Positions 4,717 through 14,008 of a stretch of DNA of 64,000 nucleotides are shown piece after piece (position 1 is the first letter of the stretch; each line of letters starts with the position of its first letter). The notes under the pieces were generated by a model. It was given only the letters and a program-made list of their open reading frames with translations, had not been told where the DNA came from and did no database searches. The position numbers were made by a program, and so were the translations under genes. This DNA comes from Caballeronia concitans (GTDB taxonomy: Bacteria > Pseudomonadota > Gammaproteobacteria > Burkholderiales > Burkholderiaceae), in assembly GCF_001544615.1 (NCBI RefSeq), contig NZ_FCNV02000004.1:310001-374000 (forward strand), in the 5' to 3' direction.

Positions 4717-8011
<3,295 letters not shown>

Positions 8012-8012
<1 letters not shown>

Positions 8013-8677
8013 CAGGCGAGACCTGTCTTGGCAGCGTATTTGACGAGGTCCACGTGGTTCTCCACGTGCAGCTTGCGCATGGCCGAGCGCTTCTGCGTGG
8101 CGACCGTCGGCACCGACCGGTTCAGCGTGCGCGCAATTTCCGTCACCGAAAGCCCTTGTGCGAAGAGGCGCACGACTTCCAGCTCGCGCGGCGAAAGCGG
8201 CTGTTCGCGTGCGAGATCCTTCGAGGTCGCCCCTTCACGCGCGAGACGAAGTTGAATCTTGGGCGAAATGATGGTTTCCTTCGTTGCGAGCGCACGCATG
8301 CTGATCTGCGCGAGTTCGCTCGCCGGCTCTTCCTTGCTCACGATGGCCGCGACGCCGAGCTTGCACAACTCATGGAACATGCCGCCGCTCGTCATCATGG
8401 TGAGAATCACGAGCGGCACGCGCGGATACGACCGGCGCAGCCGGCTCACGAGGCGCAGGCCGTCGAGTTCGATTTCTTCGTCGCCTTGCATGACGAGATC
8501 GGTGATGACGAGATCGGCCGGTTCCTTTTCGAGCACGCGAATCAACTCCGCGCCCGAATTTACCGTCGCGATGATTTCATAGCCGGGGAGCTTGGAGAAC
8601 TGGTCGGAAACAGCCAGAAGAACGATGGGGTGGTCATCGGCCAGCACCACGCGAACAGTGCGGATTTGCCCTTTCAT
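8012..8677 (-). CDS. RcsB-like response regulator (receiver + LuxR-type HTH)
   Basis: This 221-residue NarL/FixJ-family regulator has an N-terminal receiver (VVLADDHPIVLLAV acidic pocket, phospho-acceptor Asp in LVITDLVMQGDEE near residue 60) and a C-terminal LuxR-type helix-turn-helix (LSPRELEVVRLFAQGLSVTEI). The tail SVPTVATQKRSAMRKLHVEN and the receiver spacing resemble E. coli RcsB more than most NarL members. The partner is the RcsC-like hybrid kinase immediately downstream, coupled by a TGATG overlap. I chose the ATG at 8675-8677 because it puts the receiver at the N-terminus; upstream in-frame sequence is a non-conserved Ser/Arg-rich leader. RcsB proteins often control capsule genes, so the polysaccharide locus 20 kb away is a possible target (inference). 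Confidence 0.88.
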
Positions 8678-8885
8678 GGATACGCCGTCGCTCGAGCCTT
8701 CGATGTCCGCACCGGAAGACGAAACAGAAGCGCGGCTTGCTGCGGAAAAAGCAATCGACGAACGGACCGGCTCATCAGCACGTCTCCCGCACGCATAGAG
8801 ATAGCCAGAATTTATTCTAGGATAGGACGGATTGCCTTGAAAGACTAACTGCAGCGCTTTTGAATATGCCCGCCGGGCGCCCTGG

Positions 8886-9320
8886 TCAAGAACTCTTTTC
8901 ATTCCGGTCTTCACAATAGGTTCTACTCGTGGAGCCGCCCAGACACAGCGGCCCTCCTTCGCTGCGGCACAGGTTGCATTGCATCTGCATCTCATTGCGC
9001 GAGGCGTCGTTGTCATCAATGTCTCTGCAATAAGCCTTCGTCTGTCCGAACTCATGAAGCGGCATGGACATCGCGCACCGGTCCCGGGCTGTCTTGTAGC
9101 GATTGCTCTGCGTGAACAGGATGCAAGTGACTAATAACATACATGCGACGAACGCGATGGAAACAGCCAGCACGATGCACGACCGCGACAGTCCCACCGC
9201 GAAAGCCGCGAGGATGATGAAAGACATCGCGAAGAACACCGGCACCAGCACGAGCGAAGCGATTCCCAAGGATTCCGGTGATTGCTGAACGGCCTGGCGT
9301 ACAGAACGGAACAAAGACAT
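8886..9320 (-). CDS. Hypothetical membrane protein with Cys-rich tail
   Basis: The predicted product has 144 residues starting MSLFRSVRQAVQQSPESLGI. Two adjacent hydrophobic helices (about residues 20-43 and 46-67) are followed by a hydrophilic C-terminal half with seven cysteines, including CNLC near residue 116. This suggests two membrane spans with a C-terminal domain possibly bound to metal or disulphide-linked. Codon bias is weaker than in neighbouring genes and the ribosome site is poor, so coding status is less certain. No family recognised. Confidence 0.5.
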   Translation of the reverse strand: MSLFRSVRQAVQQSPESLGIASLVLVPVFFAMSFIILAAFAVGLSRSCIVLAVSIAFVACMLLVTCILFTQSNRYKTARDRCAMSMPLHEFGQTKAYCRDIDDNDASRNEMQMQCNLCRSEGGPLCLGGSTSRTYCEDRNEKSS

Positions 9321-9911
9321 ACTAGGCACCCGAAAGATGATGACAAGCGCCTCTCGCGGCTGCCTGTCTGCAGAAGCGCATTGCAATTAATGCGGGAACG
9401 AAGACTCGAACAGCAGTCGACCGCGACGCGGAAATGAGTCCGTTAGCTTCGACTGCCCGATGTTAGTCGTCACATCAGGACCGATATATCGAAGAACGTC
9501 TATAAGCGTCTGCCTGCGCGATCGCCGCCGCCTTTCCCTCCTGCCGTTGGTGCTCTCCACGAAAAAGCCGCCCTAAGGGCGGTCAAAAAGCCGTTTGGCA
9601 TGAGCAGCCCGCGCGCATGAGTTTTAAACGCGAGTCATGGCTGATGTGGTCTTCAGGTGACACATTTAACCGCTTAGGCTAACTGAATTATGCCTTTCAG
9701 CATGCTTTTAGGGATATAAACGGAATTTGATTAGCGTCACCGGACGAACTCCTTCTCGAATGCGGGAAATCCTGCAAACACGAACTCCTGCTCATAAAAA
9801 ACTAAAAAGCGAAACCCAAATCGCGCATGGGAAAACAATTCTTTCCGCGAAACGTTCCCGAGCCGTTCGTCGATGAAAGCGGCACGGGAACATCGAGTAA
9901 GGCTGCGCGAA
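9321..9911. other. Intergenic region downstream of the exoprotein gene
   Basis: This roughly 590-base stretch is lower in GC than its surroundings and has no convincing gene on either strand. It contains one good terminator-like hairpin at 9568-9582 (listed separately). I see no RNA gene, direct repeats or attachment site. Confidence 0.5.
9562..9582 (-). terminator. Rho-independent terminator (minus strand)
   Basis: A perfect 6-bp stem (CCGCCC/GGGCGG at 9568-9573 and 9577-9582) closes a TAA loop. On the minus strand it is followed by CTTTTTC (9567-9561). It probably ends the transcript of the exoprotein gene located upstream at 9912-12689. On the plus strand the tail is A-rich, so it would not terminate there. 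Confidence 0.6.
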
Positions 9912-12689
9912 TTACGCCGTCACCGCGCGTTGTGCCTTCTCCATGACCGCCTGGCGCATATGGCCCGCAAGGCGCGCCACGACTTCCGACCAGTCGCAGC
10001 CGAAGCGGCGGCGGAAGAGCCGCATCGTCGGATACCACGGACTGTCTTCGCGCGTGTAATGCCAGCGCCAGTCGCCATACGAAGGCAGCATGAGCCACAC
10101 GGGCTTGCCCATCGCGCCGGCGACGTGCGCAACGGACGTATCCACCGTCAGCACGATATCGAGCGCCGCGATTGCGCTTGCGGTTTCCGCCATCGTGTTG
10201 AGACCGGGGCCGATGTCATGGAAGTTGCGATAAAGCTGTCCGTAGCGCGCGGCTTCGTCGGCGCCCGCGCCTTTTTGCAGGCTGAAGAACTCGACGCCGC
10301 CGAGCTTGACGAGATCGTCCAGCACGCCGAGCGACGGCAGCGAGCGCTGGCTGTCGTTCTCATGCGTCGGATTGCCCTTGAACACGATGCCCACCTTCAG
10401 CGTACCGCTGTTCGTGACGTCAAACGCGGCAAAATTGGGCCAGTAGCCGCCATTGCGTGTATCGATCGCGACGCCTTCGCCTGCAACGGAGGTGCCGGTG
10501 ATATTCAACGTCCCGTGACCGCTCACATTGTTCGTGGTCTTCCAGAAGCCAACGCCGGGACCATTCGTGGACGTCCCTTGGATATTGAAAGTGGCATTGT
10601 CCGTGACGTTCACAGCGACTGCGCTGACCGGGTAACCGATGGACCCGACCGACACGCCGCCGGCGTTCATGCTAGTGCCGGTCACGTCGAGGGTCGCGTT
10701 GTTGAATACACTCACATGCGCCAGACCCTGGAAACTAGAGGTACCGAATTGAACACCGTATCCCTCTGTGGACGTACCCGCGACCGTCATCAGGCCGGCC
10801 GTCTGCGTCAAGTTGGAATTCTCACCGAAACGAACGCCGACATACGAGTTCGATGATCCGTTCACGGTCAGCGTACCGCTGCCGACCTTCGTGAAGTTTC
10901 CGCTGATAACGACACCGTCGCCTATACTGGCGAAACCGTTGATCGACCCGCCGCCGACATTCAGCACGTTGTTCAAAGCGACGCCGTTGTCCGACTTGCC
11001 CGTGGCATCGGCATTGACCGTCAGATTGCCGCCATTGAGATCGATGGTGCTGTTCGATTGCTGCCAGACATGACCAGTGGTGCTGCCCATGGCCGCCGTC
11101 AGGTTCACGTTCAGCTTGTTCGATGTCGACGTGATGTTGCCCGCGAGCGTGATGTCCCCATTGGCCGCCAGCGTCAGGGTCGCCGCCGCGCCGCCGCTCT
11201 TCACGATGTCCGCGCCTTGCGTCTGCGTGATGGTGCCCGTCGCCGCACCCGAACTCGCCGTCGTGATCGTCACGTCCGTGCCCGCGTTCAGCGCGTTGCT
11301 GATGGTCGCGTTGTTCACCGTCGCGCTGTCGTTCGAGCCGCCGCTGAAGCCGCTCGTCACGCCGCCGCTGTAGCCCGAATCCGCGTTTCCGCTGATCGTC
11401 ACATTGGTCGGATCGATCAGCCATTCGCCGGCCTTGCCGTTCGGCGCCGCCGCGCTCACCGCGCCTTGCACGTCGAGGCTATGGCCCGACGTTTCCACGA
11501 AGCCGCCGTTGCCATGAGCCGAGCCCGCGCTGATCCGCGCGCCCATGTCTACTTGCGTGTAGTTCGCGAACTGCACACCGTCTTGCAGCATGCCAGCCGC
11601 CGACGTGCCGTTCAGCTTCTTCAGGCTGTCGCCACCGATGATCACCTTGCCGCCCGCCGCATCGCCGCTCGCGTCGATGCTTGCGTTGCCGAACACGCCC
11701 ACGCGATCGCCCGACAACACCACCGTGCCGCCCACGCCGCCTGCTGCATTGTTCGATGCATCGATCTTGCCGGTCACGGCGACATCGCCCGTGTTGCCGG
11801 CATCGGCCACGACCGTGCCTGCGCGCACCACGCCCGACAGATTCACCACCGTGCTGAGCAGCGTGTTGGTGCCGCGTGCGGTCAGCAGCACCGAGCCGTT
11901 ATCGGCCTTGATCGTGCCGCTGTTTTCCACCAGCGCGTTAGCCGTGGCGTTGGTCAGCGTCAACTGAATGCCCTGGCCGTTCGGCAGCGCGACCGTCGCG
12001 CTATCGCCCGCGGCGAGCACCACCTGGCCGCCTTGTGCCGTGTTGATCGAACCCGTGTTACGGACTTGATCGCCGACGAGCGTCACATAGCCCTGTGCCT
12101 GAATCGAGCCGTCGTTCACGACGCTCGCATTCGTGCCCGTCGAGTTCAGTTGCAGCGTGCCGCCGGCCATGAACGCATCGGGATTGATGGCCTTTGTCGT
12201 CGCCAGCAGCGAGCCGACGTTCACCACCGAACCCTTGCCGAACAGCACGCCGTTGGCGTTCTGGATCAGCACCTGACCGTTAGCCAGCAGCGAACCTTGA
12301 ATATTCGATGCACCGCCGCCCGAGACACGATTCAGTGCCTGCGATTGCGCGTTCGGCTGGTTGAACTGGACCGTGTTGCCCGCGCCGACGTTGAACGAGT
12401 TCCAGTCGATCACGGTGCGCTGGCTACCCTGATTGATGGTCATCGTATTGCTGTTCTGCGAGATCGACGCCTGACCGGCGGTGACCTGGCCGCCCGTCGG
12501 CAGCGCTTGCGCGAAGCTGACGCCGGGCTGCGTCGCGAGCATGGCGGCGGCGAACGCCGTCAGCGCGGAAACAACGCGAAATCCTTCAACAGCACCTGTT
12601 TCGGATGACGAGCCTTCACCGGGCGCCTTGCCCTGGCTGACGACGTCTTCAGCAACAGCGACCAACATTCCAAGTCGCTTGCTAAACAC
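9912..12689 (-). CDS. Chimeric exoprotein: two-partner-secretion haemagglutinin N-terminus fused to a GT9-like glycosyltransferase C-terminal half
   Basis: The open frame has 925 residues. Residues 1-60 form an extended signal peptide (FSKRLGMLVAVAED, then a hydrophobic core ending SFA). A TPS haemagglutination domain follows, with TVIDWNSFNVG and a variant NPNGI motif (NANGV, residues 144-148), then Asn/Gly/Thr-rich beta-helix repeats to about residue 764. From residue 765 (10397 downwards) the last 161 residues are unrelated: KVGIVFKGNPTHEND, FFSLQKG, TVDTSVAHVAGAMGKPVW and DWRWHYTREDSPWYPT. These match the second Rossmann half of TPR-linked, heptosyltransferase-like (GT9) proteins, which are cytoplasmic. 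The fusion is in frame. The displayed start is a GTG without a ribosome site; the natural start was probably codon 12713-12711, now ACG. No TpsB transporter gene is in the window. Probably a deletion chimera and possibly non-functional. Confidence 0.8.
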   Translation of the reverse strand: MFSKRLGMLVAVAEDVVSQGKAPGEGSSSETGAVEGFRVVSALTAFAAAMLATQPGVSFAQALPTGGQVTAGQASISQNSNTMTINQGSQRTVIDWNSFNVGAGNTVQFNQPNAQSQALNRVSGGGASNIQGSLLANGQVLIQNANGVLFGKGSVVNVGSLLATTKAINPDAFMAGGTLQLNSTGTNASVVNDGSIQAQGYVTLVGDQVRNTGSINTAQGGQVVLAAGDSATVALPNGQGIQLTLTNATANALVENSGTIKADNGSVLLTARGTNTLLSTVVNLSGVVRAGTVVADAGNTGDVAVTGKIDASNNAAGGVGGTVVLSGDRVGVFGNASIDASGDAAGGKVIIGGDSLKKLNGTSAAGMLQDGVQFANYTQVDMGARISAGSAHGNGGFVETSGHSLDVQGAVSAAAPNGKAGEWLIDPTNVTISGNADSGYSGGVTSGFSGGSNDSATVNNATISNALNAGTDVTITTASSGAATGTITQTQGADIVKSGGAAATLTLAANGDITLAGNITSTSNKLNVNLTAAMGSTTGHVWQQSNSTIDLNGGNLTVNADATGKSDNGVALNNVLNVGGGSINGFASIGDGVVISGNFTKVGSGTLTVNGSSNSYVGVRFGENSNLTQTAGLMTVAGTSTEGYGVQFGTSSFQGLAHVSVFNNATLDVTGTSMNAGGVSVGSIGYPVSAVAVNVTDNATFNIQGTSTNGPGVGFWKTTNNVSGHGTLNITGTSVAGEGVAIDTRNGGYWPNFAAFDVTNSGTLKVGIVFKGNPTHENDSQRSLPSLGVLDDLVKLGGVEFFSLQKGAGADEAARYGQLYRNFHDIGPGLNTMAETASAIAALDIVLTVDTSVAHVAGAMGKPVWLMLPSYGDWRWHYTREDSPWYPTMRLFRRRFGCDWSEVVARLAGHMRQAVMEKAQRAVTA

Positions 12690-12713
12690 GCGACGAAATC
12701 TATTCTGATTCGT

Positions 12714-13330
12714 TAGAAATTTACCTGCGAAGAAATGACAGACATTCCGAACTGATGGCTCAGTGCGGAACCGACGCGCCGGAGCGCAATCTCCATGAAG
12801 CAGCGCGGAAGGCTCGACGGCCTTGACACGCCTGGATTCGACGACGCCCTTTGCGGTCTTCTCTTGACAAGCCCTGGCTCTGCAGAAAGACTTCGCGCGC
12901 CGATGACGTTCGTCGTCGCGATCACCCTTCAGCCAGGACAGCTTTTCGAATCCAGGGTCGGATGCTAAAAAGCGAAATACAGCGTCGATATAGACGAAGT
13001 TCGAAACGGTCCGATATGCGAAATGAACGCCGTGAAATTCAGAACAATCAGTGGTGACGTGGCGTCATCGTGACGAGCCGGCAACGATTAGATAAGAAAA
13101 CTTCTAATCCAGCGGTCGTCGATTTGAGGAGTTTGGAATGCCGATCCGTCGAAGGAGAGATGACGGACGTTAAGCCGGCGAGATGCATCGTTTTTAGATT
13201 TTTTCTTATTGATCCGACGTTGGCGTACGCAACGCCAACAGTAAGTCCGCGCTGGTAGAGCGGTAAATCGAAGCGCGTCAAGCAGCAGCAATGAAATCAG
13301 CCGCTGCTCGCGTCGCGCTGAAACTGAATA
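12714..13330. other. Intergenic region upstream of the exoprotein gene
   Basis: About 617 bases lie between the exoprotein start region and the downstream end of the second RcsB-like regulator. It should contain the exoprotein promoter, and an AGG ribosome-site core lies about 10 bases before the ACG codon at 12713-12711. A 7-bp inverted repeat (GTTGGCG/CGCCAAC, 13219-13239) is present without a T-tail. A tRNA-like D-arm string near 13247-13262 has no matching cloverleaf. No convincing gene. Confidence 0.45.
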
Positions 13331-14008
13331 TCAAGCCGACCGCAGTTCGTTTCCGGAAGCTGACCGGTCAAGCCAAAGCCCGTGCCCTACCGCGAACCGG
13401 TACATCTCCGATTCCCCGGAGAACCCGAGACGCCTGCACGCTTCCGTGCGCTGCGCGCTGATGGTATTGACACGCCGATGCAGCAACCGAGCCGTTTCAC
13501 ATACCGACAATCCACACAGCATCAGGCCGGTCACTTCCATTTGCCGCCGCGTGAGCGACGTGAACCGCCGGTACGCGGGCAGCGCGCCGAATTCCTGAAG
13601 CGATGCCCGGGCGATCATCGACAAATAGCGTTCGCCGTCTGCCAGCGCGCGCACCGCCGCCAGCACTTCATGCATCTCGTCGCGCTTGCTCACGATTCCC
13701 GAGACGCCGCGTTGAACGAGGCTGCCTACGAGGAAAGGATCGTCGAACTCGCTATAGACGAGCAAAGGCACGTCCGGAAATTCGCTCGATACCGACGCGA
13801 GGAAGCGCCAGCCGTCGAGCCCTTCGTCGCCCGGCATGGAATAATCCGTGAGGACGACATCGCACTCGGACGCACCGAGCATTTTGATTAATTCACTCGG
13901 GCTTGTTACTGCACCCGATACGTCGAAACCAGCGTCTTCCAACGTCTTACGGAGTCCGCAAAGCACGAGCGGATGGTCATCGACGATGGCAACCTTGATC
14001 TGTCGCAT
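13331..14008 (-). CDS. Orphan RcsB/BvgA-like response regulator
   Basis: This 225-residue protein has a receiver domain (KVAIVDDHPLVLCGL at the N-terminus, phospho-acceptor Asp in DVVLTDYSMPGDEG near residue 56, Lys in GIVSKRDEM) and a C-terminal LuxR-type HTH (LTRRQMEVTGLMLCGLSVCETA). An AGGAGA ribosome site lies 6 bases before the ATG at 14006-14008. The SMPGDEGLDGW segment matches the RcsB-like class. No kinase gene is adjacent, so it may be served by the RcsC-like hybrid kinase at 4717-8012 or by an unlinked one (inference). Confidence 0.85.
   Translation of the reverse strand: MRQIKVAIVDDHPLVLCGLRKTLEDAGFDVSGAVTSPSELIKMLGASECDVVLTDYSMPGDEGLDGWRFLASVSSEFPDVPLLVYSEFDDPFLVGSLVQRGVSGIVSKRDEMHEVLAAVRALADGERYLSMIARASLQEFGALPAYRRFTSLTRRQMEVTGLMLCGLSVCETARLLHRRVNTISAQRTEACRRLGFSGESEMYRFAVGHGLWLDRSASGNELRSA

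What the first reader, a model, noticed from the sequence alone, without database searches (positions are those of the whole stretch)
9912..12689. In-frame fusion of a secreted haemagglutinin to half of a cytoplasmic glycosyltransferase
Residues 1-764 are a two-partner-secretion exoprotein. From residue 765 (junction near 10398) the product changes abruptly to the second Rossmann half of a GT9/heptosyltransferase-like, TPR-linked glycosyltransferase (SLQKG, VDTSVAHVAGAMGKPVW, DSPWYPT). TPS systems of the HMW type use a partner glycosyltransferase, so one idea is that a deletion joined an exoprotein gene to its neighbouring glycosyltransferase gene. The GT half lacks its acceptor domain and would be exported, so activity is doubtful. 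The alternative is a new exoprotein architecture.
Basis: partly seen in the sequence, partly recalled or inferred. Interest (0 to 1): 0.75.

Follow-up and report, generated by a model that had tools for sequence, protein, structure and literature searches.

The report
Deletion-made adhesin–glycosyltransferase fusion gene
A large deletion has most likely glued the front of a secreted adhesin gene to the back of a sugar-transferase gene; the chimera itself is probably a dead remnant, but it marks a stretch of DNA that related bacteria keep breaking and rejoining in different ways.

Summary
One open frame (9912-12689, minus, 925 codons) joins a two-partner-secretion exoprotein (PF05860, 3e-36) to the second half of a GT9-like glycosyltransferase; the joint lies at about 10398-10410. 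Related Caballeronia keep separate genes here: exoprotein, HMW1C-like N-glycosyltransferase (NGT), TpsB, second NGT, methyltransferase-GT9 protein. Against the intact C. cordobensis locus the window lacks about 8.1 kb, and its genome shows no HMW1C-like enzyme and no close TpsB. The joint was found in none of 57 other genomes of the genus. The start codon conserved in relatives is also lost. The larger finding is a rearrangement hotspot: 11 of 32 mapped loci carry a gene-gene joint, each different, and two C. zhejiangensis strains, about 99.98% identical over 183.5 kb, differ here. Seven of 11 joints are in frame. Codon-phase bias of short matches in GC-rich genes can account for that if joints share 4-6 bases, but shared bases were measurable at few joints, so selection is not excluded.

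The parts
10407..12689 (-). 5' part of the chimera: TPS exoprotein (TpsA), about residues 1-761, cut inside its repeat region
   Evidence: PF05860 3e-36 and TIGR01901 1e-20; repeats align with TpsA of L078 (41%) and L082 (31%) up to residues 756-764; sequon-rich
11781..12512 (-). TPS secretion domain, residues 60-303
10398..10410 (-). deletion joint
   Evidence: GT9 similarity of relatives starts at 10401-10408
9912..10397 (-). 3' part of the chimera: second half of the GT9 domain of the methyltransferase-GT9 gene, with its stop
   Evidence: PF01075 5.9e-5 for the half alone; up to 82-83% protein identity to the ends of genes in relatives
12711..12713 (-). place of the start codon conserved in relatives; not ATG/GTG/TTG here
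13331..14008 (-). LuxR-type response regulator (first of two in relatives; the second is not found here)
8012..9055 (-). response regulator downstream of the locus
4717..8012 (-). hybrid histidine kinase, split into two frames near 5976-5979
8886..9386 (-). small open frame; relatives also have a small hypothetical gene between the GT9 gene and the regulator (not compared in detail)

Best explanation
The ORF is a deletion chimera. A deletion of about 8.1 kb, measured against C. cordobensis, removed the end of the exoprotein gene, the HMW1C-like N-glycosyltransferase genes, TpsB and most of the methyltransferase-GT9 gene, and joined what was left in frame. Shown: the gene order in relatives, the sharp start of GT9 similarity at the joint, the absence of the partners from the genome. 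Inferred: that the ancestor had the full order, that the break was illegitimate recombination, and that the product is not a working system. Without its TpsB it should not cross the outer membrane, half a GT-B enzyme should have no activity, and the usual start codon is gone. The event is one of many at a rearrangement-prone HMW/Etp-like glycoadhesin locus. Codon-phase bias of short matches between GC-rich genes is a likely, unproven, reason why so many joints are in frame.
For: Separate genes in the same order in relatives. NGT identity: NF049992 E 1.3e-198 (661.5 bits, under its cut-off of 1000), 3q3e E 8.5e-162. Partners missing: only NGT match in own genome 25% identity, only TpsB match 26%. 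Joint not found in 57 other genus genomes. Eleven gene-gene joints in 32 mapped loci, 7 in frame. Exact matches of 4, 5, 6 bases between these genes are in phase in 0.49, 0.53, 0.58 of cases, giving P 0.25-0.47 for 7 or more of 11. Clone pair. GT9 half: 0 changes at positions otherwise invariant in 15 aligned loci, window included (others 0-4), dN/dS against the rest 0.11-0.21, in the range of the other pairs, so the event looks recent.
Against: The frame is still open and the GT9 half shows no decay, which could also mean that the chimera is kept. No close parent of the exoprotein side was found, so shared bases at this joint are unknown. At 7 other joints an automatic estimate gave at most 6, 4 and 2 shared bases at three and no resolvable overlap at four; with no match the in-frame expectation is 1/3 and 7 of 11 has P 0.039. 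Three ShlB-type matches exist elsewhere in the genome and might export the exoprotein. Assembly error cannot be excluded without reads.
Confidence: 0.84

Rival explanations
1. Diversity-generating locus: frequent recombination is tolerated or favoured because it remodels a surface glycoprotein, and chimeras such as this one are expressed variants.
For: Eleven different gene-gene joints in 32 loci. Two near-identical strains differ here. In-frame joints exceed one third (7 of 11, P 0.039), and shared bases could be resolved at few joints.
Against: Phase bias of 4-6-base matches would explain the in-frame share. Four of 11 are out of frame. Most broken loci have lost or cut TpsB, NGT or the TPS domain (my reading), which ends the system rather than varying it. 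No recombinase among the annotated genes of L008-L010 (that gene table is incomplete). No systematic search for a joint motif or for donor copies was run. Start codon lost in the window.
Confidence: 0.15
2. New exoprotein architecture: the GT9-like segment is a useful C-terminal domain of a TPS exoprotein.
For: Open frame; L072 carries an independent in-frame TpsA-GT9 joint.
Against: Different joints (TpsA 608/GT9 425 here, TpsA 115/GT9 305 in L072); the segment is half of an enzyme; conserved start lost; not seen in 57 other genomes of the genus.
Confidence: 0.04
3. Assembly artefact: the joint was made by the assembler.
For: No reads here; draft of 47 contigs. The split histidine kinase downstream could be a sequence error.
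Against: The partner genes are missing from the whole assembly, rated 99.97% complete; comparable joints occur in records described as complete sequences (L008, L009).
Confidence: 0.06

Closest known systems
HMW1ABC / EtpBAC two-partner secretion systems with an HMW1C-like N-glycosyltransferase
   Same: Relatives of this locus encode a TPS exoprotein rich in N-x-S/T sites, an ShlB-type partner and HMW1C-like enzymes side by side; PMC3983070 (passages read) names predicted members in Burkholderia spp.
   Different: Several Caballeronia loci have two NGT genes plus a methyltransferase-GT9 gene between response regulators; the window keeps only the exoprotein front and the GT9 end.
GT9 / heptosyltransferase family (PF01075)
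   Same: The C-terminal 161 residues match profile positions 150-205 of 247.
   Different: The first half of the fold and the methyltransferase domain are missing.
Gene decay by illegitimate recombination (recalled as a general process)
   Same: Abrupt joints with no long shared sequence; deletions, inversions and an IS110-like insertion in relatives.
   Different: The concentration at one locus, down to a nearly clonal pair, seems unusual; no genome-wide rate was measured.

Membership tests
HMW1/Etp-type TPS glycoadhesin system | TPS secretion domain in the exoprotein | tested here: met
   PF05860 3e-36
HMW1/Etp-type TPS glycoadhesin system | Intact export start (extended signal peptide) | tested here: inconclusive
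   ESPR 18.7 bits under cut-off 25; conserved start codon lost
HMW1/Etp-type TPS glycoadhesin system | Adjacent TpsB partner | tested here: not met
   Absent from the window locus; only own-genome match to the relatives' TpsB 26%. Present in relatives
HMW1/Etp-type TPS glycoadhesin system | Adjacent HMW1C-like N-glycosyltransferase | tested here: not met
   Only a 25% match, in an OGT-like GT41 protein, in the genome. Present in relatives
HMW1/Etp-type TPS glycoadhesin system | Sequon-rich exoprotein | tested here: met
   18 N-x-S/T in residues 331-764 against 9.7 in shuffles, 4 of 1000 shuffles reach it; the shuffles do not keep the repeats
HMW1/Etp-type TPS glycoadhesin system | Secretion and N-hexosylation | not testable with these tools
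   needs cells and mass spectrometry
GT9 glycosyltransferase | Second half of the domain present | tested here: met
   23.0 bits alone (cut-off 22), 19.2 within the whole protein; alignment with intact genes
GT9 glycosyltransferase | Complete two-domain enzyme | tested here: not met
   Similarity starts at residue 425 of 588 of the intact gene
Programmed contingency locus | Variation between near-identical strains | tested here: met
   One C. zhejiangensis pair only; not tested for the window's own species
Programmed contingency locus | Dedicated recombinase, repeated site or donor cassettes | tested here: inconclusive
   No recombinase among annotated genes of L008-L010 (incomplete gene table); joints differ by eye; no systematic motif or donor search

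The most novel reading that the evidence does not exclude
The Caballeronia glycoadhesin locus is a true hypervariable contingency locus: a very high local deletion and inversion rate keeps producing expressed chimeras of adhesin, transporter and glycosyltransferase parts, some of them serving as altered surface proteins in plant or insect association.
Probability: 0.13. Interest if true: 0.8.

Novelty: new variant of a known kind. Interest (0 to 1): 0.45.

Why it matters
The chimera alone is gene decay. Two points reach further. First, one surface-glycoprotein locus is broken in 16 of the 18 Caballeronia loci mapped and differs between two nearly clonal strains, so either it is intrinsically unstable or its loss is repeatedly favoured; passaging can tell these apart. 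Second, in these GC-rich genes short exact matches lie in the same codon phase in about half to two thirds of cases (4-8 bases), so deletions that use such matches would make in-frame chimeras well above one third of the time. That is a warning against reading such fusions as designed, and a possible route by which new domain combinations arise.

Tried and rejected
Selection for in-frame fusions: 7 of 11 has P 0.039 against 1/3. Against the in-phase share of exact matches of 4, 5, 6, 7, 8 bases (0.49, 0.53, 0.58, 0.62, 0.66) P is 0.25, 0.36, 0.47, 0.60, 0.70. An attempt to measure shared bases at 8 joints gave at most 6 (L009), 4 (L037) and 2 (L074), no resolvable overlap at L008, L044, L082 and L072, and no left parent for the window. 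So selection is set back, not excluded. In checking, I lowered the best explanation from 0.87 to 0.84 and raised the contingency readings from 0.12 and 0.10 to 0.15 and 0.13 for this. The 11 joints were found through open-frame comparison, which may favour in-frame cases.

Exoprotein-side parent of the window joint: not found. The first attempt used a wrongly framed query. The correct one finds repeat homologues, the best at 41%. The same slip made the reference named TpsAw useless; rows with that name were ignored and nothing rests on them.

Programmed inversion or cassette system: considered; no recombinase among annotated genes of three loci and no common joint sequence by eye. No systematic search was made.

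Structure of the intact GT9 protein: not obtained, the service was busy.

Literature: listings (titles and starts of abstracts) only for (19 of 20 papers shown; 1; 15 of 38; 1; 9; 2; 10 of 30); passages of PMC3983070 read. None of the titles or abstract starts speaks of this instability; the library holds open-licence papers only.

Full report
What is there. The frame 9912-12689 (-) has 925 codons and no stop. Residues 60-303 are a TPS secretion domain (3e-36). The last 161 residues hold the second half of a GT9 domain: 5.9e-5 and 23.0 bits alone (cut-off 22), 19.2 bits within the whole protein. In relatives' DNA the GT9 similarity starts abruptly at window 10401-10408. The exoprotein side is cut inside its repeats, which align at 31-41% with longer exoproteins elsewhere up to the joint.

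Where it comes from. The window lies on contig C35 of a 6.17 Mb genome. The named relatives nearest to it are Caballeronia; the species is not known to me. Of 58 genomes of the genus (own included), 23 have a match to the GT9 half at E up to 1e-40, 25 matches in all. I fetched surroundings for 20 of the 24 outside the window; 14 of the 20 lie in the same kind of locus, and in 6 (L050-L055) only the methyltransferase-GT9 gene of the set was found. The four not fetched are in G043, G028, G035 and G010. One search gave 41 named loci, all mapped; several repeat genomes.

The ordinary locus. In C. cordobensis (L041/L065) the order is two response regulators, TpsA, HMW1C-like NGT, TpsB, second NGT, methyltransferase-GT9, response regulator, hybrid histidine kinase. 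P. rhynchosiae (L081) has one NGT. The NGT proteins match HMW1C_N, HMw1_D2 and the NGTferase model (E 1.3e-198, 661.5 bits under a cut-off of 1000), and 3q3e at 8.5e-162. TpsA is enriched in N-x-S/T: 28 against 13.0 in shuffles for L041 and 23 against 14.8 for the window part; TpsB and NGT controls are not (2 against 2.9, 2 against 1.5). A review reports predicted HMW1C-like enzymes in TPS loci of Burkholderia spp. (PMC3983070, passages), so the kind of system is known.

What the window lost. Against L041 the joint removes about 8.1 kb. The genome has no HMW1C-like enzyme (one 25% match) and no close TpsB (one 26% match), although three ShlB-family matches exist. The second response regulator, seen in 11 relatives, is not found: the 12.7-13.3 kb stretch shows no similarity to that gene in 6 loci compared. 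The conserved start codon is not a start here, and the hybrid kinase is split into two frames near 5976-5979. The GT9 half shows no excess of changes. Together this reads as recent loss of the system, with a chimera left open; whether by chance is inferred.

Hotspot. I count 32 distinct loci with the methyltransferase-GT9 end and at least one other gene of the set: 18 in the genus of the window (window, L008, L009, L036-L049, L104) and 14 others (L064, L070, L072, L074, L075, L077, L078, L079, L081, L082, L087, L103, L105, L106). In the genus one is intact (L041), one cannot be judged because the contig ends in TpsA (L036), and 16 are broken; two of these (L040, L049) look like general decay. 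Gene-gene joints occur in 11: in frame in the window (TpsA-GT9), L008 (TpsB-GT9), L009 (TpsA-TpsB), L044 (response regulator-TpsB), L072 (TpsA-GT9), L074 and L082 (TpsA-NGT); out of frame in L037, L039, L047, L104. L043 and L048 carry inverted pieces. Among the 14 others, 3 have joints (L072, L074, L082), L070 has a frame break in its NGT, L105 has TpsA in two frames, and in L106 no TpsB was seen; several exoprotein genes run off the stretch, so their 5' ends were not judged.

Clone control. C. zhejiangensis OP-1 (L047) and A33_M4_a (L104): a 189 kb contig of OP-1 aligns in four blocks of 183.5 kb in all, 99.94-99.98% identical, 40 mismatches (blocks over 300 bases only). Three larger differences remain: this locus, a 2.6 kb insertion in OP-1 and one replacement (the labels IS21-like for the insertion, mobile-looking for the replacement and IS110-like are my own reading of the proteins). 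OP-1 joins TpsA near residue 605 to GT9 388; A33_M4_a has a shorter TpsA followed near residue 35 of the methyltransferase-GT9 gene, plus the IS110-like insertion. So this locus changed at least once, probably in both strains, while only about 40 point differences arose in 183.5 kb. This is one pair.

Why in frame. Exact matches of 4 to 8 bases between the genes of one locus (four loci, NGT-NGT pairs left out) lie in the same codon phase in 0.49 to 0.66 of cases, rising with length. At 4-6 bases, 7 or more of 11 has P 0.25-0.47; with no match the expectation is 1/3 and P 0.039. Shared bases could be estimated at only three joints, at most 6, 4 and 2, because the known parents have diverged too far. 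The bias is therefore a sufficient but unproven cause.

Function. Most likely none. If translated, export would need a foreign TpsB, and the half enzyme lacks its first domain. Expression and export were not tested.

Noticed in passing
window 4717-8012 (-): Hybrid histidine kinase split into two frames near 5976-5979; C. grimmiae (L008) has one frame of 1097 codons. Real break or sequence error is not known.
   Followed up: partly
window 12690-13330: The second LuxR-type response regulator present in relatives between the first regulator and tpsA is not found here.
   Followed up: partly
L008 7037-9487: C. grimmiae Lep1A1 protein annotated as ShlB/FhaC is a TpsB front joined in frame to a methyltransferase-GT9 end; L009's exoprotein likewise ends in a TpsB barrel. 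Both are annotated as ordinary proteins.
   Followed up: yes
L010 9837-13356 (same record as L048): Caballeronia sp. M1242: NGT with an in-frame internal deletion, and an inverted block holding the methyltransferase part and an NGT end.
   Followed up: partly
L104 9640-10954: IS110-like element (my reading) inserted in the methyltransferase-GT9 gene of C. zhejiangensis A33_M4_a.
   Followed up: partly
L050-L055, L083, L084, L086: Methyltransferase-GT9 paralogues with no TPS genes of this set in the fetched stretch; function unknown.
   Followed up: no
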